64,000 bases of DNA from positions 1,412,501 to 1,476,500 of the forward strand of contig JAYKKM010000121.1 of NCBI GenBank assembly GCA_035772405.1. Direction: 5' to 3'. The position numbers were made by a program, and so were the translations under genes. Below are positions 25,440 to 53,810 of this stretch, one piece after another (the stretch's first letter is position 1; each line of letters opens with the position of its first letter). A model generated the notes under the pieces. That model did not search any database, was not told where the DNA came from, and saw only the letters and a program-made list of their open reading frames with translations. Source of the DNA: Chrysogorgia sp. JL179-B06. Lineage: Eukaryota; Cnidaria; Anthozoa; Scleralcyonacea; Chrysogorgiidae.

Positions 25440-25445
25440 GTTGTG

Positions 25446-25735
25446 TATGGTGGCCCATGAGTGCCATAACAATTTTTTAAATAATACTTTGTTATATTTA
25501 TTTTTTTATTGTATATATTTATTAAAAAATTTTTTTTTTTTTTTTTTTAAATTTATTGTATTTATTTTATATTTTATTCTAACAATTGCCATAACAATTT
25601 TTTAATTATATATATTTTTTAATTTATTTCATTTTATATTTATTTTATTCTTAAAAATAAATTAAATTAAAAACCATTTAAAAATTAATAAAATAAAAAA
25701 GAAATCTGGCCGTGGCCCATGAGTGCCGGCACGAA
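25446..25735 (+). repeat. Left composite inverted repeat of the alpha-kinase element
   Basis: Terminal tatggtggccc, then a very AT-rich run with t-tracts, then a second internal gtggcccatgagtgcc at 25706-25728. The same two-step layout appears inverted at 27995-28382. Confidence 0.75.
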
Positions 25736-25790
25736 AGACTGCAGTCCCAATATAGGTCAGTGGCCGACCATAACATTGTAAAAATGTAAA

Positions 25791-26521
25791 ATGGCAGAAA
25801 GAGTGAGAAATGTTGAGTGGCAAGGAGATGACGAATTGAAAAACGATCTGGAGAAGTACGTCAAGCAAAATTTGCGGAGGGATGAAATACTTGACTTTGT
25901 GAGTGAAAAATACCCCATGTATGCATGGAGCCTTCGAACTTTGTGCTGCCGACTGCATTATTTCAATATCAAGTATACAGACTACAATACAGACATTCAA
26001 TATGTAGAGGAAGCTGTACGAAAATAATAAAATGGACCGGGAAACCTTTTGGGCTATCGAGCTCTTCATACGAAGCTGCAAGAAGTTCATGATCTGAAAG
26101 TGCCACAAGGTCTTGTGTATGCCATGATGCAAGAGGTTGATCCAACGGGATTGGAAGAAAGAGGTGGTGTTGGCCTACCAAAACGACCTCCAAGAATGCA
26201 GAAATTTAAATCGGAGGTACTGTACAATTTGTTTTCTTTTATAACGCTCCCACCTACTCACTTTCAATTTGGAATAAATATGTTGGTTGAAGAACCCTTT
26301 ATTTCTTGCAGGGCTCAGACTATGTGACGTCTTTAAATGGGCATGACAAGATGTGTGGGTACAACAGAAATCGATGTTTCCTCTGTGTATTTATGGTGGC
26401 CAAGACATACAGTGGAAGAATAATTTGTTTGCGAGTTTGGACAACAAACAACAACCCAAACGTAGTGGGGAGATTTTATTTGGAATATTTAAATGAGAGT
26501 CGAGGTCAGATGGCTGCATAA
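25791..26521 (+). pseudogene. Integrase-type transposase of the alpha-kinase element, truncated
   Basis: The start atg (25791) opens MAERVRNVEWQGDDELK, a helical N-terminal region. Two adjacent taa codons (26025-26030) interrupt it, then the same frame continues with LLGYRALHTKLQEVH and EVDPTGLEERGG. An intron (gtactg at 26217, acceptor ttgcag at 26311) joins it to GSDYVTSLNGHDKMCGYN. The position of the first catalytic Asp reads Asn (NGHDK where relatives have DGHDK or DGYDK). After TTNNNPNVVGRFYLEYL the protein is lost, so the second Asp and the Glu are absent. It aligns clearly with the integrase at 51211-53237. Confidence 0.8.
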
Positions 26522-26647
26522 AATTTTGGCTGGTAGAACTTAATTACTGCATGTATACCCCTAACAATCTCTAGATAGCAAAAACAAGTAACGATCTTAA
26601 ACAGGGTGGTGTGCAGATAAATATTGCAATATTATAGCCCAAAAGGG

Positions 26648-28004
26648 TTACAAATCACAAAATAATGTAACTAGCTTCAATTGTTTGCAATATTGGTTGC
26701 ACTCATGATCTGAAATAAAAGTGTCAATTGCAGCGATCGACAGATTACCAGAACAGAAAAGAATGGTCTGGTCTTCATCATCCCTCAGTTTAGCGCTGGC
26801 AATTTCCGGGTTGCAGATGTTGTATCCCACTCCCTGGATATCTAAAACCATTAGCTCTTTAGCTGACTTCTGGTAGGTGTAATGGACAAAAGATTCAGCT
26901 TTCAAAACTAACTCACTACCATCTTGCATGGAAACGCCACCGGTGTTATTGATGTACTTCACGAAGTTGCCTTCGATGAAGCTTTCCACCGTTACGAATT
27001 CACTTCCAAGTTCTCCATAGTACACTTTGTTATACTGGAAAGTTTCACCATACTCCGGAGGGCACTCGTTTTTCAACTTCTTGGCCAAATGTTGCACTAA
27101 ACAGTTGATTTGCACAGCTTTTCGCATGTGAACCTCGAGGGAGCCAAACATGGTTTCAATGGTCAAAACTTGGTCCGCTTTGTATTTCTTTAAAACATAC
27201 TTTCCTTTTATGCCAGATAAAGCAGTTACCTCGAATGCATCTCGGAATCCACCACTGGCAAACTTCTCGTTTGTTACGGAAAGGCGCGTTTCAAAGCGAT
27301 CAAGCCAGGCTTTTTTCTATGGAAAATTACTCCAAGCAGATAGTGACTGCTTCTATGCTTGGTCGAATAATTTTTCCCAACTTTAGCATTGCTGACAATG
27401 AAACCGATGCAGGCATTTCTGAATATTTTTTCTTGGTAACAGCATAATCAGCATTCAAGAACGATGCTGACACAGACCGGCTGACTACCGAAACTGACGA
27501 GCTTTTCGTTTCTTCGGAATTGTACGTTTGCTTCTTGCTTGAATTCTCTTCCAAAATTACAATGCCTTCAACAAACCGAATGTGAAGAACTTTCCAGTTC
27601 TTAATTTGCCCAATATCCGTGAAAGAAGGCCCACGTTCACCAGCCAATAAATCGCATTTTATAGAACTTGGCATTTTAAAATGCCTCTGGCATGTCGCTT
27701 TAACGTTTTTCAACGTCAACTCCTCACCATGGAATGGAACCATTGTCAGTGGCCCTATACGCGAGTACTTCTGGCATTTTCCTTCCACGATGGACGATAA
27801 ACGCTGCATGGTCAGGTATTCCATTGCTGATGCTCCTTGGCTTGCTTCTCCTTTCTTTCCTGCCCGCTTTTTCGCGACATTTTGTTTGAAATCTTTCCAT
27901 TTGACTTTAGTGTTTAAAGAAACATAATATTGTTCATGGCTGAAACGTAGCGGAGACCCTGGGTACGAGGGTTGGCGCCCAAAAAGCACGACGATCTTTG
28001 GCAC
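26648..28004 (-). pseudogene. Alpha-kinase (eEF2K/MHCK-type atypical kinase) passenger gene
   Basis: The start (28004) gives a ~200-aa N-terminal region of unknown fold with CQRHFKMPSSIKCDLLAGE. Near 27327-27310 there is a frameshift and an in-frame tag. The kinase domain then reads FASGGFRDAFEVT (glycine-rich loop), YVLKKYK (ATP-binding Lys), VESFIEGNFVKYINNTGG, LMVLDIQGVGYNICNPEIA (catalytic D.QG.G motif) and SDHECNQYCKQLKL (zinc-binding H.CN.YC). This is the complete alpha-kinase signature, in order. Alpha-kinases phosphorylate Ser/Thr in helical contexts; the target here is unknown. The position inside the terminal repeats, convergent to the integrase, marks it as transposon cargo. Confidence 0.85.
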
Positions 28005-28382
28005 TCATGGTCATGGGCCACGGCCGGATTTCTTTTTTTATTTTATTAATTTTTAAATGGTTTTTAATTTTTAGTTTATTTTTAAGAATAAAATAAATAT
28101 AAAATTAAATAAATTTTAAAAAAATAAATAAAAAAAGTATAATTAAAAAATTGTTATGGCACTCATGGGCCACGGCCAGTTTTTGTTTTTTTGTTTTTTT
28201 TAATTTTTAAATGGTTTTTAATTTATTTTTATTTGATGTTAGAATAAAATAAATACAAATATAAAATAAATTTAAAAAAAATAAATACAAAAAAATTCAA
28301 AAAATAAATAAAAATACAATAAAAAAATTAATATAACAAAGTATTATTTAAAAAATTGTTATGGCACTCGTGCGCCACCATA
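27995..28382 (-). repeat. Right composite inverted repeat of the alpha-kinase element
   Basis: Contains gccac-type words at about 28015 and 28170 and the terminus at 28382, separated by AT-rich runs. The kinase start codon (28004) lies at the inner edge, so the repeat probably holds that gene's promoter. Confidence 0.7.
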
Positions 28383-28619
28383 GTTGTGTGTGGCAAATTG
28401 ACCCAAACACGTTTAACTGGAGTAAACGAGTATGAAACAAATGAGGTTCAGCAATCAGAAGAGCAAGAAAACAATCCATGACTTTGGCATCAAACGCTGC
28501 TGGGGGCATCACGTGCCAGGTAATTGGAAAACTCGGACAAACAACATAGCAGCGACATACAACGTAAATATGTGACAAAGCTCGGTTGTCGTGTTATCTT
28601 TTGTGTTAAATATAGTGTA

Positions 28620-29560
28620 GAATATGGAGAAAAGCGCTCTAGAGGAGAAATTCAATGCTACGAAGCTTGCAGGTTTAAAAAAGTATTTATTAGATCAATG
28701 ATGGTGAAGATGATGAGTTTGGAATAATGGCAAAAATTTATTTGAAAAAATTCAGGAAGCAGATGCACAGAAGTTCTCCAAGCAACTGAACTTCACACAA
28801 GATGAAGTAGATAAAGTGGAATCGGTTACCAAAAAACAATGACAATGCAAGCAGTAGTTTATGCACAATACTGGCTTTGTTGCAGCATCAATGACCAAAA
28901 GTGTCTACAGAAGGCAAAAGTCAGTAGAGAAGCATGGTGCAGATGTTCTCTTTTGGTCGATTCACTAATCGACAACAAAGTATGCATGCCCATGAGATAT
29001 GCAACCTCAGGAAGACTAAAAAATCCAAGGAATAAAACGAAAAAACTGTCGATTACGTGTTGCGAGTGGAGGAAGCTATGACAGCGCTATGGGCCGCTGA
29101 AGAAATAATCAGCGACTCACTGTTGATTGTGATGATTATAAAGGGCATGCTGAGTAGTTACAAGACATTCTCTACGGTGATAATACAGAGGGAAAAACAA
29201 ATGACATTTGCTGAATTTAAGACCGCCCTGTGTAACAACAGTCAATGGAGAAAATATCATGGTCACCAAAGGCAAGGAAAAGTTTGGAAACTGCTACAAA
29301 TGTGGCAAAAAGGGACAAGAAGATGGAATGCTGGTCAAAGATGGAAAGATGATGCAACAAAACGCATGATGCGAAGTATTGTCAAGGGAAGAAAGACACA
29401 GAAGAGGGGAACGGAGAAGTCAGCGTCAGATGTGAACAATGAACATACTTTAGCCTTGCAGTTAAAGACAGCAGTGATAATTTATTTGTAGGTAAGAGTA
29501 ACTACAATTTGTTAGTAGATACTAGGGCTACTAGCCACATAATAAGTCGAAGTTAATAGC
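28620..29560 (+). pseudogene. Copia-like gag/protease relic
   Basis: Frames in order give MEKSALEEKFNATKLAG, VDYVLRVEEAMTAL, LSSYKTFSTVIIQRE with MTFAEFKTAL, then a CYKCGKKG-type zinc knuckle near 29290. Near 29505 comes NLLVDTRATSHI, the aspartic protease D(T/S)GA motif with Gly changed to Arg. The order capsid, CCHC, DTGA(T)SHI is the Copia pattern. No integrase or RT follows, no LTRs were found, and frameshifts are frequent. Confidence 0.65.
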
Positions 29561-30589
29561 TTTTTGACGACTCTGATGCTATTAAATTAGAATGCTTGAA
29601 GTTTTGTTTCATGAACTGCTTATTGCTTTGGAACTTAAACAAAATAAGGCCATCTTCAAATATCCAAACCGCGTCAGGCAGACCGGACACTATTTTTTTT
29701 ACCAGCACTCAGTTAAACGTCTGACTACATCCTTCCATTTACAGAAGATATGGACATCGCTGAAGAACTGTGCTGTATCGAAAGAATGATAATACAGTTG
29801 CATTTGCAACTGTGTCTTGTGGTCTTCTCTTGAATTTTCCACTTTTCTGAACTTAGTGTCAGTATCAATAACCTTTTTTATAATACAAGAGTTACAGCAA
29901 AATGACTTTAGAGCACAAATATCTCCTTCGGCATCCAATCCCAGGTCCACTAACAATTCATCTGCATCCATCTGAAAATACATACAAGAGAAGAGAATAA
30001 CAGTGAAATATCACCGTACCTATTTACAGATACAGTATCTACTAAAACCACTGTGCTTCTTTCTGAAAATGTATTGAGCTGTCTGCAGGAGAGTACGTTT
30101 AGATTTCCGATAAACTATATGGTCAAATTATCCCAAATACTTGAATATATTTTGTACTTTTTTTAGAACGTGGAAAATTATTATTAATATCAGCTATGTA
30201 CTTGGAAAATGTCGTAATTGGTGGTAATATAGCTAAATTGCTAAAACCTTATTTAAACAATTATTTAACACTTCTACTGTACAACTATGTTCCCACACAT
30301 GATGGTTTATTTTAATATATTTTATTAATATTATATTAACTATTATTAATATTTAATATCATATTATATATCACATATCATAGACATATCTCTTCAAATG
30401 AAGAAATAATAGAAAGTGGCTTTGTTGTTAATATGAAATCGACACATTTATTGAAATGATAGCATGATGCAAGTTTCCAGTTTTGTGCCAGCTACAATAA
30501 CTTCACAAGTTTTGTTCAGATGCAAGCATTTCGATAAACATAAATACCCCTATATTCTGGAGGGCAAAAGACCACATCCCATTGAATAA
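29561..30589. other. No recognisable gene
   Basis: AT-rich. A 94-residue minus-strand reading (29699-29983, cysteine pair SFCCNSC) is unrecognised, and I give it no function. Confidence 0.35.
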
Positions 30590-30935
30590 TGTAATAATAA
30601 TAATGTTTACTATTTATATAGCGCAAATTAGCATGTGTATATGATCAAATGCGCTTTACAACATCGACAATTTATTCTATTATATTCAGTACCTAGTATC
30701 CAGTACCCCAAATCAATTAACCTTAGCTATTTTTACAGTTTTTTTATCATTGGTTTTCCTAACTATTTATCCTAGCCCACCCTGTCAACTTCCCTGTGGG
30801 AGGAACCCGGAGAAAACCCACGACTTTCGGCAGAGTGTTGACCAACTTTTTCCACATGCAATCAAATGACCAACACAGGACCTCCAGAGGTGGGAGGCAG
30901 TGGCCCTGACCACTAGACCACCGAAGAGTTTATCT
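30590..30935 (-). repeat. tRNA-derived SINE
   Basis: On the minus strand the head reads ggtggtctagtggtcagggc (pol III A-box-like TGGTCTAGTGG), followed by a degraded B-box area. The body has ccgggttcctcccaca. The 3' part reads gtaaagcgcatttgatc and gcgctatataaatagt and ends in an (att)n tail near 30600. Head, body and LINE-like tail with a trinucleotide repeat are characteristic of invertebrate SINEs. Confidence 0.75.
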
Positions 30936-30989
30936 CGAATCATTGCTTCAAGTAACAATCTTTGCTCGATATTGTACATTATCACCGTT

Positions 30990-32180
30990 ACTGTGAATTT
31001 CTTCAAACTCTAACTTGGTCTGAGGACAATGTTCAAATGGAAAATGGAATCTGCAAGACAGTAGCTTGTGCTACAACGAGTGTCGTTGAACCCTGTTCAA
31101 CATATTTACATAATCAGATTCTATTTCATACTCAGGAAGGTCATTATGGCATTTCTGACATTGATGAACTTGGGGTCTTATCGAGATGTCGTCACCTTGG
31201 CGCGTTTGGGTTAACAGTTGACAATAATCAATCAACATGCTGACACAGTATGTCAGCTTTCTTACCAGATTCAATATCCTGGTCTAGTTCTGTTGTGTCA
31301 GAACAGTCATTGTCATCTTTAAATTTCTGAGCTAAGAATCCTTTAGGGCAGTAAGTTGACACAATCCTGGGTCATTGTTTAGTTTGGCAGTAGCATGACA
31401 ATGAATACTACCTCTACCTTGGTATTCATATTTGAACTAGTGCCATTTTGCAGCAAGAGTATCAGAAAGCCAGTGTTTAAGAAAGCTTTCTAGTCTCTGG
31501 GTGAAAAACCAATCTACAAGATGAGGATTGTTAATAACGTTTTGTCGTCTGTTTCACTGGTGGTATCAGTATTTGCTCCAAACAGAGCATGTAATTCCGG
31601 CCAATGCATATCTGCTGATGAAAAAGTAAAGAACAATGTTGGTGCTCCAACATTGGTTAATGCTTTGAGTTCCTCTCTGACCTTATTCCAGTATGCATGT
31701 GTACCTGCAATATTGCCAACATATCTTGACACTTTCGACATAAATACAGCTGAGTTGTTACTCACGGCCATTAATAGTGAGATGTGCTTCACCTGGATTT
31801 TGTTTGAGGAAAATTCCACTTTGTTGTAAAATGCGCTTTCTTTGAATCGTATTGAAAGCCCAGTATGAAAATCTAGGGTGGTTGGCAAAATGGTACACCC
31901 ATTTACCATCAATAAGTTCAGCAAATTTTAATAGAGCTTGATTGGTGGGGTCACCTTTTAAGGGATAATGTTGGAAAAGCCATAGTGGCCAATTTATTTT
32001 CAACAGTTCATTTGGAGAAAGTTGACTTTTAACTGTTCTGTTTCTTGTTCTTGTTGTTCACCAACAGGTAAAAAAATACTCATTTCAGTTGACTCATTAT
32101 AAACTGTATCCTCAGAGCGGGTTATCAGTAGGTGGGCCTAAATCAGGCATAACATTATTGCATCAGACACTATTTCATCT
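30990..32180 (-). pseudogene. Helitron-like N-terminal domain relic
   Basis: Minus-strand pieces in order: [37 protein letters not shown] with [32 protein letters not shown], with [20 protein letters not shown]; then CQKCHNDLPEYEIESDYVN. These are the 'HPRF.Y...N...R', 'R...YW......L' and 'P..FFT.S.AD..WPEL' motifs of the Helitron_like_N domain. No Rep HUH motif or Pif1 helicase was found in this window. Confidence 0.65.
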
Positions 32181-32251
32181 TCAGTATCAACAGTCATGAG
32201 ATCTGCTGGAACGCCATTTTCAGGTAAAGAGTTTAATGCTTCTACATTAAT

Positions 32252-33110
32252 TTATAACTCTGCATAATGAGGATTATGTACAAGCCACAATAATGCATTG
32301 TGTACTTTTTCTCTTCTCACAGTAACATCTTTAAATGTGTTATCTCTTCCTTTAACCTTGACAATAATCACAGACAATTCATGCTGCTCGTTTTTCTTTT
32401 TTATCGAAGCTTCAGATTTTATCGAATCTAATTCAATCCCAGCAAACTGCAACACTTTTTCTCGTGTGCTAAGGGAATGCCTAGTTAAATCTATAAAGAA
32501 GTCTAAATATGCCTGGCATTCTCGACTAGATGCTGAAATTATAAGAAAATCATCTAATAAGTGCAGAATTTTGTCAATCTTTAGTTTATGTTGAGCAATC
32601 CACTCAATGGCTGTACTAAAAAACGTTTCAAATGTCTTACATGAACTAGTACAGCACATTGGCATGCAGCGATCGTAATAATATAATCCCATTTCATTCC
32701 CAATAATGGATAATTACATGGGTGTACTGGTATGATCCGAAATGTACTCTTTATTATCAGTTCTAGCCAAAAAACAGCTGGGTCCCGCGCGTTTTATTAA
32801 GCGTATTGCATCGCTAACGGTAGCATACCGTACACTAGTGTCTTCATTGGCAATACCATCGTTTATCAAAATGACATATAAGTCGGAAATCACCTGGCTA
32901 TTTCTTTGGTACTACACCAATTGGCGAAACATAAAAGGAAGGAAATGGTAGATAGAAAAATGACCCAGCTAGCCTATAGAGTATTATGTTTATCAATGAA
33001 GGACTTTGCATGGGGCTAAAACTCATTAATAATCCATGAGAAAAACACAAAGGAAAATCATAACCGAGATGTTTGTAAATGTGATCTTGATAAGCATAAA
33101 ATTTCGACAA
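32252..33110 (-). pseudogene. DIRS-like reverse transcriptase fragment
   Basis: Upstream piece: LAGSFFYLPFPSFYVSPIGV VPKK (33110-32898). After frame changes come DDG-like linker text and [14 protein letters not shown], then [20 protein letters not shown] followed by LLDDFLII, the RT catalytic xDD, and [11 protein letters not shown]. The 'SPIG.VPKK', 'CLPMG(C/A)SSSC..FE.FS' and 'HLLDDFL' motifs recur in DIRS-type YR retrotransposons. The RNase H and recombinase parts are absent. Confidence 0.6.
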
Positions 33111-33489
33111 CTTTCACCTCTATTTTCTCTTAAAATACTGATTTGTTTGAGATGCTATATCATACACTCGAAAGCCGTTTATTATCTGATTTCAAAACAC
33201 CTCGAACTGTGTTGTAAATCAGATAATAAATGGCTTCTCATGTATGATATATAACTTCAAAGATTTTGTGTTAAAGACATAGTTGGCGTTTGGAGTTGCA
33301 GTTTGTGGCAAATGGAACTAGCCCCCAAAGTCACGATCTGTCGGTTTCAACCTTTTGTGCATGTGTTGTGCATATACTCCTTCTACAGAATGTTTGAAAT
33401 AATAAATCACAGTACCTGGATCTTGATTGACAACACCACAGTTTGCTGGCAATGCAGCAAGAATGCGACCAGAACGTATGCTCCTTGAT

Positions 33490-34734
33490 TCAAGCGTTGA
33501 ACAAATCGTTATGGATCAAAATTTGTGAATAAGTAAGCTCATTTGACTGACATACTTCAGGTCCAGGGTAGATGATCTCGTAAACTTCTAGAAGGAGTTT
33601 GGAATCATCTGAGTCCAATGAGCTTAGTTTATAATTCTTTGGAATAAAAATCGCTGACTGATTACTCCATACAGTTCCTAAAGGTAATGGTGATGTAACA
33701 GCAAGTGTGTGGACTGTCCACTTGGTTGCCCAATATAAGTCCTCCACCCAAAGGTATCACTCTCATATTGCTTGTTTTCTGAGAACAAATGGAGCAGATC
33801 GTTTTGGAACAAGTCTGGTTATTCTATCATTTAGAAAAACTATCCATTTTAAACCTTTTCATCAATTGTAGCTCAAGAGATCTTTTGATGGTTGGTGTGC
33901 TACCCAATATCCCATTAAAACGTTCGAAACTGAAATACCAAAAACTATTGTTGGACCGTGATCTAATATGACATCCTTTAGGTGGCAGTGGAGATGCATG
34001 TTTGGTGTAATAACTTATTTGCCAGTCTTTCAACTTCTCTGCAAATTTCAAAAAAGTCCATAAAAAACTGCAATATCTGTCTTGGAAATAGATGTTTGGC
34101 AAACATACTTACATGCAAGTACAAATGTTTGCCAGCACTTAAAATCAGCTTCTGGTAAAATATCCTTTACGTAGAATAGCGAGTAAAGTAATCCAGTTCT
34201 TCCACTGTTCAGCTGTATAACAACCAGTGTTGGAAGTTATTTTATGTGGTAATTTTCCGAATGGCACATCCATTAAATTGATCTTTTTTCAACATCCAAA
34301 TTTCAGTCCCAAGGAAAAGATTGTGCATAGTATCGATAGTGAAAAAGTGAATGACATCAAAAAATATGTTAGGTCGAGTAAAATACTGTACTGCGTTATT
34401 CCATTATCTTGGCAAAATGCTTGGGTTCTGGATACTAATTTCAAACAATGAGAACCACCATGAAGGATTGAATGGCTTTTGAAACCTAACTTTCTTGTGG
34501 TAGCTTAATGGCAATCTGCATTTGTGTTTTTAACTTTATTCCATTCCACAGACATTGTAATTCTTTTATAGAAGGTTCCAGAAATGGATTTAAACTATTT
34601 GGCTCTTTGTATATAATACAAAAGAGTAAATCAGAATAATCCTTTCTTCTTTTCATTGGCTGGAAAAAGTCAAAGTGCAGCATAAAACCATTGTTTCTTA
34701 AATCTTTAAGAAAGATCTTTCCATCCACTGTCAT
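33490..34734 (-). pseudogene. EnSpm/CACTA-like transposase relic
   Basis: Minus strand: FMTVDGKIFLKDLRNNGFML with DFFQPMKRRKDYS (34734-34610), EPNSLNPFLEPSIKELQCLW (34590-34530), later FSFERFNGILGSTPT with LELQLMKRF (33940-33860), then WTVHTLAVTSPLPLG and LLLEVYEIIYP (33720-33560). These match the TNP2-like core of animal EnSpm elements (WFQP, EP..+N..L.P.++EL..LW, FERFNG.LG). Several deletions and frame changes. Confidence 0.55.
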
Positions 34735-35499: not shown

Positions 35500-35910
35500 G
35501 ACACTGCCACAGTTGATCGAATGGATACTATTAAATATCTAGGTGTAACCATTAACCAAAACATGACTTGGTCTGATCACGTTGGTACTGTCATATCTAA
35601 GGCAATACAATGCATTGGCCTGCTCAGGCGCATCAAACATCTTCTACCACATCAAACCTGAAACGCTTTGTCTAATGCTCTGATTCTGCCAATTATCAAC
35701 TATACCAACATTGGGGGAGATAAGGACAATATTACAATTACGAATACAATACAGATAATCGAGAACAAAGCTAGCTGTGAAAGCGATCCTGGATATATTC
35801 CTCTCTATTGTTCCTCAACATAGGTCCAACAAACCTTGAGGTGGGAGAAGCTTGAACAAAGATGAAAGTTCCATAGATGTATTGCTGTCTAAACAAATTA
35901 ATGGTTTAAC
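35500..35910 (+). pseudogene. LINE reverse-transcriptase C-terminal fragment
   Basis: Reads DTIKYLGVTINQNMTWSDHV and ISKAIQCIGLLRRIKHLLP, the region after the RT active site in CR1/Jockey-type LINEs, then breaks down. Confidence 0.55.
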
Positions 35911-35939
35911 TGTTCTTGATTGAACGTTTGTTTAAATAA

Positions 35940-36010: not shown

Positions 36011-36049
36011 ACCACTAGCAGCGAAATTGAGGTAATTTTAAAATTCAAA

Positions 36050-37255: not shown

Positions 37256-37259
37256 AAGG

Positions 37260-40998: not shown

Positions 40999-41642
40999 TA
41001 GTCCAGTCAATCTACGGTTTAACATCAAACAAATTGCAAAATAAATGATTTTAGCTTTTTCATTACCTTGATACATTCAGAACTAACATACCAAAAGTCC
41101 CTAGAAATCAAGTTTTTCTTACAATTTACCTACAAAAGCACTATTCTTTAAAAAAGGTGAAATTTCAAGTTCACGTTTAGCAAATATTACCTATGTCGTT
41201 AGAAAGTTCTCAAAAAGCTGTATGAATGACATTTAAGCGGATAGTACAATTTTCTAAGCCCATTTTGAGTTATTCGCTCAAGAAAAGTGGAAAATGCAAC
41301 AAAATTCTATTTTTTAGCAGGTTTAACCTTACGTAACTCAAAATCGGAATGGAAAATTGTACTACCCGCATAAATGTCCTTCATATGGTTTTTTGAGAAC
41401 TCTCTAACGACATAGGTGATATTTGGCAAAAGTGAACTTGAAATTTCACTTTTTTTAAAGGATAGTGCTTTTGTAGTTAAATTGTAAGAAAACCCGGATT
41501 TTCTGAACTTTCCACTAAGTTGATTTCTCGGGACTTTTGGTATGTGATTTCTGAATGTATCAAGGTACTGAGAAAGCTAAAACCATTTCTTTTGCAATTT
41601 GTTTGAAGTTGTACCTATATTTCAGATAGATTGACTGGACTA
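40999..41642. mobile_element. Foldback MITE with TAGTCC ends, TSD tag, inside an exon
   Basis: Arms of about 300 bp begin tagtccagtcaatct and end agattgactggacta, flanked by tag (40996-40998 and 41643-41645). Removing the element and one tag restores the exon exactly: gtggatag joined to cacaaatcag reads VDSTNQSIHWT. The six terminal bases and the 3-bp target size are shared with the Academ-like element at 430-6494. Confidence 0.85.
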
Positions 41643-43212: not shown

Positions 43213-44768
43213 TTTTCCATGGTACAGTATCAATAATACATTTAAATTTTATAATTTATAAATGGAAGGTGGGGGATTGGTAACTCTAACATTTGTTTTC
43301 TTCCAAAATCAGATGAAAACTGTAATCTAGATATACCAAATCAAAGTGCCCAAAAAAAACAAGAAAGTCGTGGTTTAATCAACTTTGCCGTGATTGCATT
43401 GAAATGTATTTTGGAGATGGTGAAATGCTTAAGCTTGTCAACCAAGTGGACGAATTGCAAACTGTCTTTCAAAACAGATTTGAATGTAGACAAGTCGGAT
43501 GCCAAACAACACTCGAGGCATGTAATGTAAGCAATTAAATATTAAAGTGCAATTACACATGTATTAGTATAAATTTTTATGAATGCAAACCATGCATTCT
43601 GAATGGCTAATTTACTAAATATTGGTGTAGTTTTAGACTGGTAAGAAATCAAATGAGATTTTTAATTTCTCCATTTTTATATGGCTATGAACCAAACATC
43701 ATTTCCATCTTCCCTATATAGCCACAAAGTTATCCCATTTTGAAAAGTATAATTTACTTTTGTTTATTACAGTCATGAGATAGAAGTACATGGACTTAAA
43801 GTGTGGACAGGAGATGAAGAAAGAGACTTTATTGGTTATTATTATTGCAGAGCAAAATGTGGAAGAGTTTACAGTACAAAATCAACTAGAAATAGGTAAA
43901 TATGCACTTCATCATAATGCCCTTTTTCAGTTATGTTTCTCTATACTCAAAGTCTCAAACTAACTCGTTTGTTAGGGTAAATGTGTTGCTTTATAAAATG
44001 GTTTGCTTTTTCAATTAGACATGAAAAGACTGCACATCCAGACTGTGAAGACAATGTAACACATGAAACCCTGCAAATATAGAAGATGCCAAAGATGAAA
44101 AAGACCCTAATGACTATATATACAATTACCATAGGGCCAAAATGGTGTTTGGTCTCATGCTACTAGAATTTGAAGATGCTATAAAAGAGGGGGATGGTGA
44201 CAGAGTCCTTAATGTTTATAAGCTTGCTTTGCTTATTTATAAGATAAATGGTCATACAAAGTACGCATATATCACTCTGCTTTATTTGGTAAATGAACAT
44301 GCTGCATTAACCGCCTTCCAAGCAAATTTCTTGAGACACAACAGATTTTACAATAAGTATGGAGGGAAAGGAAGAAATATACCTCTGGATCTTAAAATGG
44401 AGCAGCTTAATAAGGTTCTAAAGTCACTGTGGAGAGGACTGGGAGCAAACCTAAATGAAACAAATGCTTCAAGGGTGGCAAATGCAATTGAGGTACTGGA
44501 GTGTCTACTTGACTCAATTGATAGAGATTGTACTTTATCTGGTAGACATGGTTACAGGTCAAACAAACATTCTGAGAAGTATGTTAAACAAATAATCAGT
44601 GATCTGAAGGAAAAGAAAGTGTTCAAGTACACAGTGTCTAGGGAAGGGTACCCATCTTTCCAACAGTTTAATGCAAACCTACTAAATGGACTAGACTATC
44701 GTGATCTTCACAAATGGATGACAGAACTTATTGACAAATGGCAGACAATATTACCTAATCAAAAGTAA

Positions 44769-45323
44769 TTATAGCCATTTCAATTACCCCTTTTATAAAC
44801 AAACAGGGCATGAGATTTGCAGTATCCCGATATCCCAGATTTTAATTTTGGATACTGCATGGGCATCATTAAGCTCAGTATCCCGAAAATTGGGTTAGTA
44901 AACAAATGTTGAACAGCTAAGATGTAAATAATAAGATTTACACTCTTATTGATTGTTATTGTATAGCTATCGTACTGTAGACACACACTAGTGAGTAGAG
45001 TCTAGTGTAATATTTATAATGTTGTGTTAAATAAAATAAACCTTGTTTGGATACTGCTAATTATTTAAAAAACTACAGTACTATCCAAATATGGGATACT
45101 ATAATTCTCTGACAAACATAATTTGCATAAATATATTACTGTTTTACAAAAAAATTGTAATAATTATACAGTACATAAGCTATAAGTACTGTTTCCTATG
45201 AGAAACTTTCATTTTTTGTACTCTAGTAATAATATGACCATTCTAATGGATTATCTGCATTTATCTTTATCAGCTGTATGTTGTTGTCAAATCTCAGCTT
45301 AGTTGTTAATAATAGAGTACAGT
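44769..45323. other. Non-coding spacer
   Basis: AT-rich text with repeated gtatcccga / tatcccag words (44820-44890). No gene is visible. It separates the DUF6589-type gene from the HECT element. Confidence 0.4.
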
Positions 45324-45329
45324 ATATGA

Positions 45330-45790
45330 TACGGTGGCCCACAAGGGACATGCTGCATATTAAAATCTTGCTGCAAATTAAAATCGAAGTTGCTGCAAAT
45401 TAAAATGTTGCTGCAAATTAAAATGTTGCTGCAAATTAAAACTATAAGTTGCTGCAAATTAAAAATATGGGTTGCTGCAAATTAAAAATATGGATTGCTG
45501 CAAATTAAAACTATAGGTTGCTGCAAATTAAAAATATGGGTTGCTGCAAATTAAAACTATAGGTTGCTGCAAATTAAAAATATGGGTTGCTGCAAGTTAC
45601 AAATATGGATTGGTGCAAATTAAAACTATAGGTTGCTGCAAATTAAAAATATGGATTGCTGCAAATTAAAAATATGGGTTGCTGCAAATTAAAGGGGTAA
45701 AACCTATGCGCGTGCATAATGACCGTGAACAGACTGGGTACTACATTTGTGCACAAACGTGTTCTAAAACATGGCGAAAGATTAAATATT
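45330..45790 (+). repeat. Left inverted repeat with ~16 subterminal tandem units
   Basis: After the 27-bp terminus come about 16 copies of ttgctgcaaattaaaa plus a 0-8 bp variable tail. The tails mainly alternate between actatagg and atatggg or atatgga. The array ends with attaaaggggtaaaacctat and gaccgtgaacagactgggta, which are mirrored at the other end. Regular subterminal arrays commonly bind transposase; that role is inferred. Confidence 0.88.
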
Positions 45791-45804
45791 TATGAGTTTA
45801 TAGG

Positions 45805-48800
45805 ATGACGTTCTGTTCTGGTTGTGGTGTTCAGTATATTCAAGATGCAAAGTATTGTCATCGGTGCGGCATCACAGTTCCTCAAAGCCCGATAACTAGC
45901 GGCCAAGCCCAAACATCAGAAGCTCCTTCTACCAGTACTAGTACAACCGAAGAAGATACTAGCAAACCTGCGAGTAGAGATTTTTCCTTCAGCGCCTTTC
46001 GTTTACGGAAGGAGGACGACAGAGCCAAGTTCTTCAAAAAGGGTGGCCCAAAGAAGAAAATGAAGACTCAAGAAAAAAAAACACAATTAAGATCACTGTT
46101 GGAGTGATGATAATGAAGGATGGGAATTTATCAGTAAAGAGAGGCGCGACTCTTCCTTTGACTGTGCCTGAAGTTATCGCGTCTGATGATTTACTTAAAA
46201 GAGCAGTGGATAAACACAGTAGGTTTAACCATAATATAATAACGAATGACTCAACATCCTACAGGCTTGTTTATGGAGACACCAAAGTGGTTAAAACAAT
46301 TCCTGGATCCGAAAAACCATTCACTTTGAAGCGATACAAAGAAGAAATCGACAAACCGTACTGTAGAATAACATTCTATTTGTGCTCGTTGGACGACTAC
46401 TTGGATAGCATCATGGCTGTATCAGAATCCTCTGATGATGAATTAACCCACACCATTTACTCCACCAGTAACTCGACCACCACCACTGCCACCACCAGGA
46501 GTCAGCACGAGGATACCACAACATCTTCAGACAGAGTGGCATCTCACCAATCCTCTTCGTTGACTACCAATGATATACAACCTGTAAGCAATGAAATTGT
46601 AATTTTGTCTCCTCAGGCACAGAAAATACAATGTCCTATTTGCCTGGAAAGTTATCCAGTACAGGACATAGAACATCATGCAGATAGCTGTTCTATGTGG
46701 CTGTTGGAAGAAGTTGATGAGCCACCATTTGGAAACTCCTCGTCAAATGGAATCGAAATTGAATGTGAAACAGCAAATGTAGGAGAATCTGCAATATTGA
46801 ATGTTGACAAAAAAAAAGCATTGATGGAGGAGATATCCCAAGTGGCAAAAATGCATATGCTTGATGATGAACCAAAACGGGTGACAGTAAGAAGGAAATG
46901 CATTTGGGAAGACTTCAAGAAGGTTATGCAGGGAAAACTTAACCCAAAGACAAAAGTTAAAGTTGTTTTTGTTGGAGAACCTGCTGTGGATGATGGAGGC
47001 CCACGGAGAGAGCTATTTTCAGGTAATACATGTGACCAGGATTTCACAAATACATGTAGGTCCAACTCCCAAGCTGCAAATTAGTTTCTTTTAGGGTGCC
47101 GGTATCTGGTTTCTGGGGGTATGCTGGCTACAGAATTTGACATTTTGTTGTATAGTATGCAGTATCTAGCCTATGCACATGAACACCTCGCGTTGCATTG
47201 CTTTATATAGTGGGAGTATTGTTTATTAATGTTGCAATTAATCATAACATTTCATTCGACTTTTATTTTAATACAGTATGGACGTGTTTATTTTAGGTGT
47301 TTTGACTACCCATATTCACTTGAGTTAGACTGTGAAATTTGGCCCTGATAACTAAAAAGGAGGAATTCAAAGACAATCCCCATAGAATCACCCTAAAACC
47401 CCAAGAACTTGAACACCAATCTGATCTCATCCTTAACCTTTAAATTTGTAGAATTACTATCCATCGTCAGGAGAAAATTTTTTATAAATGGCAAGCCTGT
47501 ACAGTCAACTTTGGCAATAAGCTCAGGAGACTTCAAGATTTGTGGTGTAGCAATGGGGATGTCTATCTTGCAAGGTGGCCCTGCACCCAACTTTATGGCA
47601 GCTAACATTGCTTCATATATTACAGGCAGTAAACTATCACCAAATGAGAACAAGGAGATCAAGTATAAAGCAGTTGCTGATAGTGTAAGTGTAACATCTT
47701 CGTAGAGAACCAAATATCTGTACAAACCATAAGTAATTAAAAATGCGGAACTTGATATTCAGGTCAAAACTCAAATGAACACAATAATGGTGGTTTTTTG
47801 GATCTACTGTACTATCAAAGTCATGATAAAAATATCAAGTTTTACATTTTCACAAATTGATACAAATATCAAGTTTTACATCAAGTTTTTATTTTTTCCT
47901 TAATTGTGTTACATACTGTAGCACAATAATGACTAAAATAATGATAGTTTGGAATATATGATAATTTATGGTACCACACTACTCTCTTTTATAGTTACCA
48001 TAGCAACCAGTGATGAGCAAGTGAGGAACCTTCTCATAAGTGACTCCATTCTTGATGTTCTACAAGAATTAGGGTATACTGGGATTCCACATAAGGAAAC
48101 CATGCTTTCAGTTAAAAGCATCATACAGTAAGACTGGTTGTACCGTGTATCCAATTTTATTCACTTTATTGTTTGTGAAAGGCCTGCCTTTAGAAAAAAA
48201 ACTTCTAAAACTTTCATGCATGTTCTGGTAATCCCCTTGAAATACAGGGCATTGATTTATTTAATGCTACAGTATTTCCAATCCAGCAATAACAATTAAT
48301 GCATCTACTGTATTAATATTATACATATACAGTGTACCAACCTGATCTCCAATCGGTGAGCGAAGATAAGACCCTGGGTATGAGGTGTGTACAGTGTACT
48401 TGGAAAATGTTTGTATAATATTATTGTAGTTTATAAAGTATTTATGAAACACTTTAATATAAAAAGTGTTTACTTATTTATTGATTTGTTTGAAAGAGCT
48501 CCTCAAACGATAAAGAATGGCGTTTCATAGTTTGCAGTTCTTCCATACCTTATCTCGTTCTCGATTTATTCAAAAAATAAAAATTGTGTAATATGACCTA
48601 TGACGTCACCAGTTTTACCCACCATTATGATGAATCAGAAAATGAAGCATATCTTCGAAACTATTGAACAAAATTCCTTGAAACTTTGCACAAGTATACA
48701 GGAGCCCACAAAAACTTTAGTGTTGCCATGGTAACAGATTAGTTCCCAGACTCCTTTATTCCTCTCATAAACTTGTGTATATTCTGCCTTTTATAAACCA

Positions 48801-50050
48801 ATATTTAATTACCGATAATTTAAATAGTTAGTTTAAATACCGATATTACAAGTATAAGTAATATCATGGTAGTCAACCATGTAATCACAACTGATAACAT
48901 GAAATTTTGACAACCATTATATTACAAAGTATATAACATGGTAATGGTGTATTAGCTGTTAAACTGCCCACTTGATTTGGGAATTAAGTAAAATTCCTTA
49001 ATGACCCTCATTGAGCGGGGGCGGTTTAACAGCTAATACACCTCACTACCATGATATTACTTATAATAAATCAATAAAAAAGTCACCTCAATTTACGTTT
49101 CATAAACACTTTAAGAAATGGTACATTTCATTTCACAGATCATTGTGCATCAAAGATCAATTGGGACAATATTTGCCACAGCTGTTGGAGATTCAAAGTG
49201 GCTTGGATAAATGCGAAATACATGATAGCATCAGAAATCATCCGGAAATATGGAGAGTGGTTTTTGAAAGTGGGAGTTTCTTTAAGCTCTCAGCTGATGC
49301 TTTCTTAGATCAGACTACTGTGGTATTTAGTGAGTCTCAGTTAAAGAAAAATACAGAAATTGATACTTACAAGTTCTTCTGCGATGTCATCGAAGCTGTT
49401 GATGTTGGAGGTACTTTACACAGCATGAAGCCATGAACTAAGCATTATTGAGACCCACAACAAGGCAAACTCTACAAAATATTACTTGACGGATGATATA
49501 TCCAAGGATATGAATCATCCCAAGGGGTTAGATTTTGTCAAATTTTCCAAGTTGAGGGTCTATAAATTAAATTATACCAATGTATGAATGCAGTCTCCTC
49601 CATTGTTGAGATCTCAATAATCCTCTATGTGGGGGTGCAGTGTGTTGTACAGTAGTTTGGTATGGTAAATGAACATGTACATGTAAGCAATACCAGATTG
49701 GGGGTGATTCTATGATAATCGAGTGGTCATGTCTTACAAATCTGATACAATATATGCATACTTTGTGGTAACTTCGAATCTTTGATGTTATTTTCTTAGA
49801 TGTTGAAGGGTTGCAGCTGAATGATGTAATGCAATGGCTTACAGGGTCTTGTGAAGTGCCTCCACTTGGATTTTCTAAGATGTTTAGTCTGCAGTTTGTG
49901 CATGGTTGTACAGAAGGTTGCAGGTGTAGGCCAACAGTGTCCACATGTGACACATCTATCAAGATGCCCATCCACATTAATAATGTTGATATTATGAAAG
50001 AAATGCTATTATCTGCAGTTAAAGACTCATATGGTTTTGGAAATTTGTAG
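45805..50050 (+). CDS. HECT-type E3 ubiquitin ligase (G2E3-like), transposon passenger
   Basis: Starts MTFCSGCGVQYIQDAKYCHR with CG, a C4 zinc ribbon. At the A9 run (46073-46081) the frame slips by one base, then reads KRGATLPLTVPEV and GSEKPFTLKRYKEEI. CPICLESYPVQDIEHHADSC (46633-46692) is a UBZ4-like CCHC finger. The HECT domain begins near VRRKCIWEDFKKVM, with VFVGEPAVDDGGPRRELF. Exons: to 47022, 47452-47684, 47995-48127, 49139-49410, 49800-50050, all with gt-ag ends. Late motifs are MGMSILQGGPAPNFMA, GYTGIPH, WLTGSCEVPPLGF and PTVSTCDTSIKMPIHI, where the TC Cys is the expected thioester residue. The phase at 47684/47995 does not match, so one more lesion or a misjudged splice site exists. 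HECT ligases transfer ubiquitin through that Cys; the substrate is unknown. Confidence 0.82.
48850..49075. repeat. Foldback MITE in a HECT-gene intron
   Basis: catggtaatggtgtattagc / tgttaaactgccc near 48938 pairs with gggcggtttaaca / gctaatacacctcactacca near 49018. It resembles the palindromes at 56.7 and 57.2 kb in design (gcgattaaattgccc-type arms). Confidence 0.6.
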
Positions 50051-50340
50051 ATTAATTTATATATCCTGGTACATAAAGTTTGTTTCAGTTAAGATACAAT
50101 CTATTTTGGGGGTTTCTTGCATGGATTTTTTTTGATTTTAGGTCTTCTGAATGTCATGGAAATAGGTTATATAGGTAAATTCTGTCAGAGGCCTGGTCAC
50201 ATGCATTTTCAAGTGAAAATGCAACCTTTCCAATTTTTCATCCACATGTGACAGTTGTCACATGTCTGCCATTTTAGAAATCCCCCGACCTTAGTTATAC
50301 ATGTACTGGGGTTTACATGGACGGAAGGCCAAATCATTAA

Positions 50341-50654
50341 AGGTGCCGTCCAGTCCGTTCAGCGCATGTCCACGTTTCTGTTTACATTGTTTGTTTACAT
50401 TGCACCATATAAACATTGAACATGAAGTATTGCGGGGTTTTTTCACACGCTTGAGCTTTTCCACCTAAAAAGTGTGTTTTAAGAAGCTGTTTGGTTCCTA
50501 AATGTTGTTAATATATCAAACAACCACTCGTGTCTTCGCCACATTTAACGAATACTCACTTTCGAACTGTCGAAAATCTATTCCGTTAAAGTTTGTTTAC
50601 ATCTGGGGTCCCCAAGAATTTAAATATCACACATGCGCAGAACGGACTGGACCT
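50341..50654. mobile_element. TTAA-flanked MITE between the two convergent genes
   Basis: The ends aggtgccgtccagtccgttc and gaacggactggacct are inverted, with TTAA on both sides (50337-50340 and 50655-50658). It is 314 bp and has no gene. Target and AGG ends parallel those of the 7415-7943 MITE. Confidence 0.75.
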
Positions 50655-50884
50655 TTAATAAATTTGCATTTGGAAACAAAAATGTATGTACTGTATGTGG
50701 ATACTAAAATACCAGCTGCGAGTCAGAATTATGGTTTCCTTGTCTATGGACTGTGCCCCCCCCCCCCCCCATCCCATAATTTTCCACAGTACACTGTACA
50801 GCTGTACTACAAAAATTAATAGAACTAGACATAATGAAGATAAATTAAGAAGGAAGTTTCTTCTTAAATTTATATCTTCACCTA

Positions 50885-51080
50885 CAGGGGCGGATCCAGG
50901 CTCATTTGATAGAGGGGGTGCAGATTTTTCAGGGGGGTGCATCCATCCACAACCACCTTAAATTATGTCAAAAATGCGATAAATCATGAAATTTTTAATA
51001 TACACTGGTTGATACGGATTTTTCTGGGGGGGTGCTAATTTTTTCTGGGGGGTGCGACCCCCCACCCCTAGATCCGCCTA
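50885..51080. repeat. MITE with ggggcggatccagg-type ends
   Basis: ggggcggatccagg (50887) is inverted as cctagatccgccta (51067-51080), with g-rich tggggggtgc words near both ends. Just upstream is a poly-C run (50756-50770). Confidence 0.6.
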
Positions 51081-51210
51081 TGTTCACCTATGTCTTCCAT
51101 TACTTCTTATTCAACTTGAGTATTGTGGTAAATTATCTGGGCACTAGGGTCCATCGATAGGTTTTTAATTTTTTATTGATTTGAAGTTTGGAAACTTACT
51201 AGTTAGTGAT

Positions 51211-53237
51211 TTAATTCTGCAATTCAATAAGCCTATTAAATAAGTGAACAGCATCTTCTTCGTTGACTGGGCATTGCATTCCCATTTCTTCCATCACAGA
51301 TTCAAAGTACTCTGAATAAATGTTTTCCTGTTCCTCAACTTGACAGTTAGCTTCCATTTCCTCTATTTGTGTTGCATTCAAATGTACAAGGCAGTCTTGC
51401 TTTCCCACATACTCAGGTAACAGATACAAGATATTTGGAACGCCTGAAATGGTGTCATGTCTGGACTTCCTGATATAGTGGCTGTTCCAGTGCTCTTTCA
51501 CTTTATCCAGGTCATCTTGAATAAGTTGAGAAAAGCAAAACCACAGGCATTCCATCTGCAACTCATTCCCCAACTGCAAAATATTAGATTGTACCATGTC
51601 CTTGAAGAAGTCAATCCACCAACTGGTTCGATTGCGTCTGAGAAAGGACCACCAGGCCTCAATGCTTTGATTTGAATGGGAAGAACCATAAATGTGAGAT
51701 TTAGCTGCAGCAAAAGCATCATTTCCATTGGCTCTAAAAAAACATTGCATGGCAGCCACAAGCCCATTCTCTGTACCACAGTCAGATCGCAAAATCATAG
51801 GGCATCCTCTCAATGTTGTCACAGCTTCCAGAAATAAATTGGCAGGAATCCTTGGGTCATTGTTTGACCGCACTAATTCTAGCCAAATTATTCTTCGGCT
51901 AAAACCACAAATGCAACCATGTATCGGAAACCCATATGGTTTTAGCTTATCATACCCTGCAATTTAAAACAATGATGAATCTTGGACCTTAGGATAATAT
52001 AAGCATGCACTTGTACTTGTAAGGTAATAATAGGTGATGCTTGGTATGCATATACCAGCAGCAGTGCCTGCATTAGTGTTTGTAAACAGAAATAGAGAAA
52101 CAAATAAAAGATAGATAACACTAGCTACTGTACTAACAATCATCATAAGTATGCAGTGTAGAGCTACAGTATAATAATTTCACAGCAAGGACTGACCTGG
52201 TAATTATAGTAGATTAGTAGGCATACGAAGCATCACTGGAAGGGGTACACAAGTTTGAAAAATTAATTCTGAGCTCATTTGAATTGCATCCTGTTGAACT
52301 TGATTTTATATCTTATGCTTTCACATACAAATTTTGAAATTTTAGGGAGGGGTGTGGCCCCTGTTTATTGTGTTTATGGGGGCCACCATATGCTTCCTGG
52401 CAATGCAGTATTGAGCAACCTCAAATCGTGAATAGACTACAGTACTGCAATGGGCTATTCATTCAATTAATATCCGCACCCCCTATCGAGGAACTTGGAA
52501 TTCTTCAGGGGTAGGTTCACATTGAGCCTTGGAATTCCTCAGGGGTGGCCTAGAATTCCTCGAGATAGACGTTTTCTAGCCTGGAATTCCTCAGGGATAG
52601 ACATTTCAAGACCATGTGTCTCATCAAATCGGGGGGGGGGGGGTGCGGTTATTAAATTGAATAGCCAAAAGTATGTTAAATTTTCTGTACCATCTATGTG
52701 CCAACAGAAATTTGGCCCCAAAGATGAATACCGTCGTCTTGTTAAACGTCGAGATTTTCTTTCCTCAACTCCATCTGGATCAATCTGCTTCAGAAGCCTA
52801 GCAACTAAATTTCGAGGAACATGCACTTGGTGACGTAGACGTAGTGCATGCCACATGCTTCTATAAGCAGCAAGTCTTCCAGCACCTTGGATTTCGTCTT
52901 CGATCAGCCTTTTTACTGCTTCCTCGTCAACACATTTTCCCTTTCTTGACAAGCCCAGATCTTTCAATTTTCGTTTCAAAGTCCGCAAGTGAATGGATAT
53001 CCCTTCTTTTTTAAGCAAATCAACGATAGCAATATATGGGAAGCCGAGGTGAAAGTACTCTGTGATTGTGTCGTTAAGAGATACATCATCAACACACTTG
53101 TCGCATCTTTTCCCTTCTTGATATGTTGTCCGTCCACATCTCGCACATGAAAAACGCTCTACATGTAACTGTCTACCGCATTGATGGCAGAAGTTTGCAT
53201 CTGCGGTAGACTCAATACCACAACAGGAACAAAACAT
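51211..53237 (-). CDS. IS3EU-like integrase transposase, two exons, open DDE
   Basis: Exon 1 (53237-52691) and exon 2 (51956-51211) join across a gtacag..ttgcag intron to give 430 aa without a stop. I chose MFCSCCGIE at 53237 as the start because it aligns with the HECT start. The N-terminal zinc ribbon has CSCCGIESTADANFCHQCG, followed by a second C-x2-C pair (CARCGRTTYQEGKRCDKC). An HTH-type region follows (FPYIAIVDLLKKEGIS, LRTLKRKLKDLGLS). The catalytic core has WHIDGYDKLKPYG (Asp), LRSDCGTENG (Asp) and SHSNQSIEAWWSFLRR (Glu, 40 residues after the second Asp). It should cut and join the element's ends. A MITE lies in the intron. Confidence 0.88.
52451..52672. repeat. MITE in the integrase intron with ggaattcctca repeats
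   Basis: ctattcattcaattaatatc near 52453 pairs with gttattaaattgaatag near 52656. Inside are four spaced variants of ggaattcctcagggg (52495-52600) and a g13 run. Confidence 0.6.
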
Positions 53238-53655
53238 AATACGAATACGATTGAAGTTGGTCCCAGTCTGTTCACGGTCATGCGCGCGCATAGGTTTTAC
53301 CCCTTTAATGTGCAGCAACCTATAGTTTTAATTTGCAGCAACCCATATTTTTAATTTGCAGCAACCCATATTTTTAATTTGCAGCAACCTATAGTTTTAA
53401 TTTGCAGCAATCCATATTTTTAATTTGCAGCAACCCATATTTTTAATTTGCAGCAACCCATATTTTTAATTTGCAGCAACCTATAGTTTTAATTTGCAGC
53501 AATCCATATTTTTAATTTGCAGCAACCCATATTTTTAATTTGCAGCAACTTATAGTTTTAATTTGCAGCAACTTATAGTTTTAATTTGCAGCAACTTATA
53601 GTTTTAATTTGCAGCAACATTTTAATTTGCAGCATGTCCCTTGTGGGCCACCGTA
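53238..53655 (-). repeat. Right inverted repeat with subterminal tandem units
   Basis: Inverse of 45330-45740: ccagtctgttcacggtcatg (about 53262), aggttttacccctttaat, then about 16 units of ttttaatttgcagcaa with atag, cata or catt tails, ending ggccaccgta. The order of unit variants is similar but not identical to the left array. Confidence 0.88.
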
Positions 53656-53810
53656 ATATGAAAGTTAAAATTATTTTTTATGACTGGGAAGCATATGGCA
53701 TTAGGGCAGGAATTATGTTTCAGTAAATGATTTCTGAGCTGTCACTGACAAGTTGATTGTTTATCTGCACCAATACTACTACACTTCCCAATCACATAAA
53801 TAGCTAAAAA

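What the first reader, a model, noticed from the sequence alone, without database searches (positions are those of the whole stretch)
25440..53661. A shared architecture with an exchangeable signalling-enzyme slot
The two elements share TAY ends, 6-bp duplications, a left-right convergent gene layout and homologous integrases, but the second gene is a kinase in one and a ubiquitin ligase in the other. Inference: this transposon lineage repeatedly acquires host post-translational-modification enzymes, perhaps to tune the transposase or the host response. This is the best candidate here for an undescribed system.
Basis: inference. Interest (0 to 1): 0.95.

Follow-up and report, generated by a model that had tools for sequence, protein, structure and literature searches.

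The report
Transposons paired with kinase or ligase
Two jumping genes in this coral-like genome each carry a cut-and-paste enzyme plus a second, host-type enzyme (a protein kinase in one, a ubiquitin ligase in the other); the partner looks fixed within each transposon lineage rather than freely swapped, and the ligase pairing was not found in the papers searched.

Summary
Element 1 (25446-28382) and element 2 (45330-53655) are IS3EU-like DNA transposons with TAY ends, exact 6-bp duplications, homologous DDE integrases and a convergent second gene: alpha-kinase (PF02816, 1.8e-34) in one, HECT ligase (PF00632, 1.7e-9) in the other. The inference of repeated acquisition fails its own test. In the 781-Mb genome, of the loci listed by capped searches, 55 of 70 element-1-type integrase loci have a convergent alpha-kinase within 5 kb and none a listed HECT; 35 of 97 element-2-type loci have convergent HECT and none a listed alpha-kinase. 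A third integrase lineage also carries HECT. On the integrase tree kinase versus ligase needs one change over 25 labelled rows; the two integrase types are distant (28% identity). So this is a two-gene transposon whose second enzyme is a conserved partner, switched at least once, long ago. Alpha-kinase in IS3EU is in print for fungi (PMC12730594); HECT in IS3EU was not found in my paper searches. Extra: in element-2-type elements transposase and ligase begin with the same kind of zinc ribbon (6 of 6 elements examined, one partial), suggesting that the ligase is aimed at the element's ends or transposase. No third partner class was seen, but most unpaired loci were not inspected.

The parts
25440..25445 (.). 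E1 left target-site duplication GTTGTG
   Evidence: repeated at 28383-28388
25446..25514 (+). E1 left terminal inverted repeat (TATGGTGGCCC...)
   Evidence: 69 nt, 96% complementary to 28314-28382
25791..26520 (+). E1 integrase, N-terminal half only; two in-frame stops near 26025; intron before about 26311; first catalytic D reads N; the part with the second D and E is missing
   Evidence: (frames), compared with L002
26648..28004 (-). E1 alpha-kinase gene, convergent to the integrase, split over two frames (28004-27327 N part, 27316-26648 kinase domain)
   Evidence: (PF02816, 1.8e-34)
28314..28382 (-). E1 right terminal inverted repeat
28383..28388 (.). E1 right target-site duplication GTTGTG
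45324..45329 (.). E2 left target-site duplication ATATGA
   Evidence: repeated at 53656-53661
45330..45738 (+). E2 left inverted end (TACGGTGGCCC...), holding a 23-bp tandem array 45368-45693
45805..50050 (+). E2 HECT ligase gene: N-terminal zinc ribbon (from 45805), C2HC-like finger (by eye), HECT exons at about 47465-47630, 47995-48128, 49128-49410, 49801-50050 with the catalytic-Cys context STC
   Evidence: (PF00632, 1.7e-9); splice borders approximate, role of the Cys recalled
51211..51956 (-). E2 integrase exon 2 (second D and E of the DDE core)
   Evidence: (PF24764, 3e-26)
52691..53237 (-). E2 integrase exon 1 (zinc ribbon, HTH-like region, first D)
53262..53655 (-). E2 right inverted end, holding a 23-bp tandem array 53304-53618
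53656..53661 (.). E2 right target-site duplication ATATGA

Best explanation
Both are two-gene cut-and-paste DNA transposons of the IS3EU kind. Shown: a DDE integrase-type transposase at one end; a convergent gene for a protein-modifying enzyme at the other; 6-bp target duplications; the partner class goes with the transposase lineage among the loci listed in this genome. Inferred: the second enzyme is a true helper selected in active copies. It acts on the transposase/DNA complex or on a host silencing or repair factor. In element-2-type elements I favour a ligase brought to the element ends or to the transposase through a zinc ribbon that both proteins carry, marking the complex or a host protein bound to it for removal. 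In element-1-type elements a kinase fills the same place. The kinase/ligase difference is one old switch (or one old gain of each), not a live exchange.
For: Anatomy. Pairing in the genome, convergent and exclusive: E1-type x kinase 55 pairs within 5 kb, 55 convergent, 0.13 expected; E2-type x HECT 36 pairs, 35 convergent, 0.16 expected; cross pairs 0 (lists capped). Profiles over 33 fetched loci plus the two window elements: kinase in 15 loci and E1, HECT in 10 loci and E2, no locus with both. Tree: one change over 25 labelled rows. Constraint between divergent copies similar for both genes: integrase 0.117 and HECT N half 0.163 (window E2 against L024; HECT C part saturated); kinase 0.184 and integrase 0.168 (E1 against L005/L002). 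Zinc ribbon at the start of both genes in 5 of 6 element-2-type elements and partly in the sixth, in 0 of 120 kinase-type proteins.
Against: No assay; the targets are unknown. Closer copies show weaker or no constraint (13 ratios from 0.25 to 1.94), as expected of dead copies but also of dispensable genes. The shared zinc ribbon could be mere sequence exchange between inverted ends; its within-element likeness is only suggestive (3 of 720 orders as high, two of the six elements being close kin; 3 of 24 with four of them; DNA 9 of 120). L027's HECT-like piece (5.6e-4) lies on the same strand as its integrase; one E2-type HECT pair, one third-lineage HECT pair and one third-lineage kinase pair are not convergent.
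Confidence: 0.62

Rival explanations
1. Exchangeable slot: the lineage often captures host signalling enzymes, and kinase and ligase are two of many recent passengers.
For: Two enzyme classes sit at the same place and orientation in one architecture; fungal IS3EU elements can also carry a TET/JBP gene between transposase and kinase (PMC12730594, passages and one section read). Most unpaired loci were not inspected.
Against: One change on the tree; exclusive co-location among listed loci; no other enzyme seen by reading the ORFs of L004, L006, L011 and L018, the E1-type loci without a kinase (no Pfam scan of these); HECTs of two integrase lineages are nearer to each other than to solved cellular HECTs.
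Confidence: 0.1
2. The second genes are neutral passengers or captured host genes without a role in transposition.
For: E1's copy is broken; closer copies show ratios up to 1.94.
Against: Divergent families keep both genes at similar constraint (0.12-0.18, dS near saturation); kinase motifs D[IVLM]QG and DP[EQ][IV] in 61 of 64 long proteins each, H.C[NH]..C in 51 of 64; 90 of 91 E1-type x kinase and E2-type x HECT pairs are convergent.
Confidence: 0.13
3. Kinase and ligase proteins are one ancestral helper with a shared N-terminal adaptor domain and an exchanged catalytic domain.
For: By eye each has a basic N-terminal stretch and then a compact beta-rich-looking domain.
Against: Profile comparison gave no support: probability under 3% for kinase against HECT and under 1% with the third lineage, from three sequences only.
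Confidence: 0.1

Closest known systems
IS3EU DNA transposons (Repbase superfamily; with GingerRoot), as described in PMC10045372 (passages read)
   Same: TA..TA termini, 6-bp target duplications, DDD/E integrase-type transposase
   Different: The paper's main text holds no 'kinase', 'HECT' or 'ubiquitin'; transposase phylogeny against Repbase entries could not be run here
Fungal TET+ IS3EU elements of rusts and Tuber, PMC12730594 (passages and section 25 read)
   Same: TAYGG..CCRTA ends, 6-bp duplications, transposase and alpha-kinase genes in opposite orientation: the E1 layout
   Different: They carry an extra TET/JBP gene; the hosts are fungi; no HECT form ('hect' and 'ubiquitin' 0 occurrences)
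Styx element of Zymoseptoria, PMC10853768 (passages read)
   Same: Said to descend from an IS3EU element encoding two proteins, one a DDD/E transposase
   Different: Two further genes were added; the second ancestral protein is not named in the passages seen
G2/M phase-specific E3 ligase-like proteins annotated in corals (Paramuricea, Montipora, Stylophora)
   Same: They match E2's ligase (E 8.8e-97, 4e-39, 3.9e-83)
   Different: Named as ligase genes; whether these three lie in transposons was not tested

Membership tests
IS3EU | TA..TA (TAYGG..CCRTA) termini with inverted repeats over 30 bp | tested here: met
   E1 69 nt at 96%, E2 inverted ends over about 400 nt
IS3EU | 6-bp target-site duplication | tested here: met
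   both exact; also exact in 11 of 20 E1-type loci, 3 of 5 E2-type loci, a fourth with 1 mismatch, and 2 of 6 third-lineage loci
IS3EU | IS3/IS481-like DDE integrase | tested here: met
   PF24764 3e-26 in E2; E1-type against E2 6e-43; E1's own copy is truncated. Likeness to IS3/IS481 proteins themselves was not tested
IS3EU | transposase groups with Repbase IS3EU proteins in a tree | not testable with these tools
   no Repbase sequences are held
Alpha-kinase-bearing IS3EU (fungal layout) | alpha-kinase gene in opposite orientation to the transposase | tested here: met
   E1; 55 of 70 listed E1-type loci. E2: not met, it carries HECT
HECT E3 ubiquitin ligase | HECT domain with catalytic Cys context | tested here: met
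   E2 PF00632 1.7e-9 over the cut-off, STC motif; activity not testable
Exchangeable-slot transposon lineage | more than two partner classes, or repeated swaps on the integrase tree | tested here: not met
   one genome, capped lists

The most novel reading that the evidence does not exclude
A transposon that encodes its own ubiquitin ligase aimed at its own transposition complex: ligase and transposase carry the same zinc-ribbon head, kept alike within an element, so that the ligase is drawn to the element ends or the transposase and controls turnover of the complex or of bound host silencers. A related lineage fills the same post with an alpha-kinase.
Probability: 0.22. Interest if true: 0.75.

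Novelty: new variant of a known kind. Interest (0 to 1): 0.45.

Why it matters
If right, a large transposon group in coral-like genomes (in this one 1,745 integrase, 1,189 HECT and 247 alpha-kinase first-look candidates, a loose count that may include host genes) consists of two-gene machines whose second gene is a dedicated protein-modifying enzyme. Kinase against ligase as alternative partners makes it testable what a transposon needs from the host's signalling machinery. It also warns that coral genes named as G2/M-phase E3 ligases, myosin heavy chain kinase B-like or alpha-protein kinase 1-like may in part be transposon genes, so reported family expansions need checking.

Tried and rejected
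Shared N-terminal adaptor between kinase and ligase proteins: no profile support. A third partner class: none seen by reading the ORFs of loci lacking a kinase (L004, a deleted copy with complete ends; L006, L011, L018). Relatives in IMG/VR: none confirmed. Prokaryotic outgroup for rooting: the scan gave only two contigs filed under a sponge symbiont genome, probably sponge DNA (L032, L033), so the tree is unrooted and the direction of the switch is open. Solved structures: only weak HTLV-2 integrase matches (0.0017-0.0018) for the integrase profile, the other three of five listed being E 0.6 or worse. Structure prediction: not available. Rfam: no match in the window. Earlier notebook entries miscounted: the correct figures are 15 of 20 E1-type loci with a kinase inside the fetched stretch (L001's kinase lies just past its edge), 11 of 20 with complete ends and exact duplication, and 3 (not 4) of 5 E2-type loci exact. 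Rows dropped before the co-location count: of 133 rows, 32 were left out (15 at E2-type loci, 16 extra short pieces of loci already counted, 1 decayed row of 38% identity); of 151 kinase matches one was not printed.
Full report
WHAT WAS CHECKED. E1 lies at 25446-28382 and E2 at 45330-53655. Both have TAYGGTGGCCC ends (E1's right end has one change in these 11 bases), inverted repeats and exact 6-bp duplications (GTTGTG, ATATGA). With fixed criteria (TA[CT]GG ends, 20-nt TIR with at most 5 mismatches, 6-bp TSD with at most 1) exactly these two pairs appear in the 64-kb window. E2's integrase is open in two exons (53237-52691, 51956-51211) and matches the integrase core family PF24764. E1 keeps only the N-terminal half, with stops and with N where the full-length relative L002 has the first catalytic D. 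L002's integrase and E2's share 28% identity over 352 aa (6e-43). Second genes: E1 alpha-kinase 1.8e-34; E2 HECT 1.7e-9. In both elements they converge on the integrase. Among named relatives of E2's integrase in the list, 5 of 7 are octocorals and 2 stony corals; among those of the ligase 3 of 8 are octocorals, 3 stony corals and 2 (weak) fish. The host is therefore probably an octocoral or near one; the genome itself is unnamed.

The genome holding the window has 781 Mb in 522 contigs. Searches gave 70 E1-type integrase loci (from 101 of the 133 rows; the 32 dropped rows are accounted for), 97 E2-type loci, 150 loci nearest to the Pfam model, none shared with the other two lists, taken as a third lineage on the strength of 6 that were fetched, 142 alpha-kinase loci and 129 HECT loci from two queries. 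All lists are cut to the best-scored candidates. Within 5 kb: E1-type x kinase 55 pairs, all 55 convergent (0.13 expected); E1-type x HECT 0; E2-type x kinase 0; E2-type x HECT 36 pairs, 35 convergent (0.16 expected); third lineage x HECT 14 pairs, 13 convergent; third lineage x kinase 1 pair, not convergent. Within 10 kb: 60 pairs, 58 convergent; 0; 0; 37 pairs, 35 convergent; 15 pairs, 14 convergent; 1 pair, not convergent. The expected numbers assume even spread over the genome. No partner was listed within 5 kb for 15 of 70, 62 of 97 and 136 of 150 loci (HECT for the last).

FETCHED LOCI. Profiles of the kinase protein and the transposon HECT over 33 loci and the two window elements: kinase in 15 loci and E1, HECT in 10 loci and E2, none with both. 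L026's HECT was seen with Pfam instead. L027's hit is weak (5.6e-4) and lies on the same strand as its integrase. Loci with neither: L001 (kinase just past the edge), L004, L006, L011, L018, L032, L033. Complete ends with exact duplication: 11 of 20 E1-type loci, 3 of 5 E2-type loci plus one with a mismatch, 2 of 6 third-lineage loci (L026, L028).

TREE. 36 integrase rows, 388 columns: the E1-type rows (14, 100/100), the E2-type rows with HECT (7, 100/99) and the third lineage (6, 100/100) are each one side of a branch against the other groups. Over the 25 rows with an assigned partner (13 kinase, 12 HECT), kinase versus HECT needs 1 change; L004 and L027 were left out of that count because no partner, or only an unclear one, was found, and 9 rows of unknown partner were not counted. 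For L029 and L031 the HECT assignment was by eye when the tree was run and was confirmed by profile afterwards. Dendronephthya P0059 counts as HECT on its gene number next to P0170 alone. The tool warns that the long E1-type and third-lineage branches meet, and the tree is unrooted, so the direction (ligase to kinase or the reverse) is open. L030's HECT scores 126 bits with the HECT at a locus beside an E2-type integrase (C96) and up to 117 bits with protein relatives of E2's HECT, against 23-26 bits for the best solved cellular HECT. This favours one origin of the transposon HECT; the host's own HECTs were not compared.

ARE THE SECOND GENES FUNCTIONAL? Between divergent copies dN/dS is 0.117 (integrase) and 0.163 (HECT N half) for window E2 against L024, and 0.184 (kinase) and 0.168 (integrase) for E1 against L005/L002; dS there is 1.4-2.3, so the ratios are rough, and seven other comparisons, the HECT C part among them, were saturated. 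Thirteen comparisons of closer copies give 0.25-1.94 on 5 to 170 changes, as decaying copies would. Kinase motifs D[IVLM]QG and DP[EQ][IV] are each in 61 of 64 long proteins and H.C[NH]..C in 51 of 64; their roles are recalled. A HECT Cys motif was found in 4 of 52 HECT-type proteins; most of the others have no HECT domain in their predicted length.

A SHARED HEAD. In E2 the first codons of both genes encode a zinc ribbon, and the first ~70 nt of the two genes align (score 30 against a maximum of 15 in 300 shuffles). Of six distinct E2-type elements examined, five (window, L022, L023, L025 and Dendronephthya P0059/P0170) have a ribbon at the start of both proteins; L024's transposase ribbon is partial. 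L021, a near copy of the window's E2, has both too. In L025 the ribbon on the ligase side is assigned to the ligase by position only. Among the proteins listed, 52 of 120 E2-type integrases, 41 of 52 HECT-type proteins and 0 of 120 kinase-type proteins have such a ribbon in the first 70 residues. Ribbons within an element tend to be more alike than between elements (3 of 720 orders as high with six elements, 3 of 24 with four, DNA 9 of 120). This is suggestive, not shown, and two of the elements are close kin. E2 also has 23-bp tandem arrays inside both ends, which could be binding sites (inference).

MECHANISM. Shown: two-gene anatomy, target duplications and a lineage-fixed enzyme partner among listed loci. 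Inferred: the partner helps transposition, by acting on the transposase complex or on host silencing; in E2-type elements the ribbon could bring the ligase to the element. Not shown: any activity or target.

KNOWN OR NEW. PMC12730594 (passages and section 25 read) states that all TET+ IS3EU families of fungi have transposase and alpha-kinase genes in opposite orientation; it gives TAYGG..CCRTA ends and 6-bp duplications for those of rusts. E1's layout is therefore known. PMC10045372 (passages) describes IS3EU by TA..TA ends and mostly 6-bp duplications. PMC10853768 (passages) speaks of an ancestral IS3EU with two proteins. HECT together with IS3EU, or with DNA transposons in the forms searched, gave no paper that looked relevant (the single papers listed were seen as listings only). 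The library lacks most subscription papers, and Repbase, where such a protein may be noted, could not be searched. Verdict: a new variant of a known kind; the exchange model in its strong form is rejected on this genome's evidence.

Noticed in passing
window 59948-62662: 160 copies of a 17-bp unit (GCTTAATACGGGTGGCC), 99% matches, coinciding with the 62% GC stretch; the unit holds TACGGGTGGCC, close to E2's end TACGGTGGCCC.
   Followed up: partly
L005 3885-4964: Repeats of a TACGGGCATGTTACATA-like 17-bp unit in inverted order between the exons of an E1-type integrase.
   Followed up: no
window 52380-52390 (-): A lone TATGGTGGCCC inside the intron of E2's integrase; it may be a relic end of another element.
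   Followed up: no
window 54334-54735 (-): Helicase_C domain piece about 0.7 kb right of E2.
   Followed up: no
window 17134-17574, 20798-21568, 58389-58904, 44067-44768: DDE_Tnp_4 transposase, two reverse transcriptases and a DUF6589 piece: other mobile-element-like genes in the window.
   Followed up: no
window 41016-41615: Nested inverted repeats of 168 and 99 nt, 88-89% complementary, 61 and 402 nt apart.
   Followed up: no
L026, L028: Third integrase lineage elements (5.0 and 5.2 kb, TSD TGATCA and GATGTC) with HECT partners; repetitive open frames near both ends suggest terminal tandem repeats.
   Followed up: partly
L032, L033: Two contigs filed under a Cycloclasticus symbiont genome from a sponge encode third-lineage integrases; probably sponge DNA in the bacterial bin.
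   Followed up: partly
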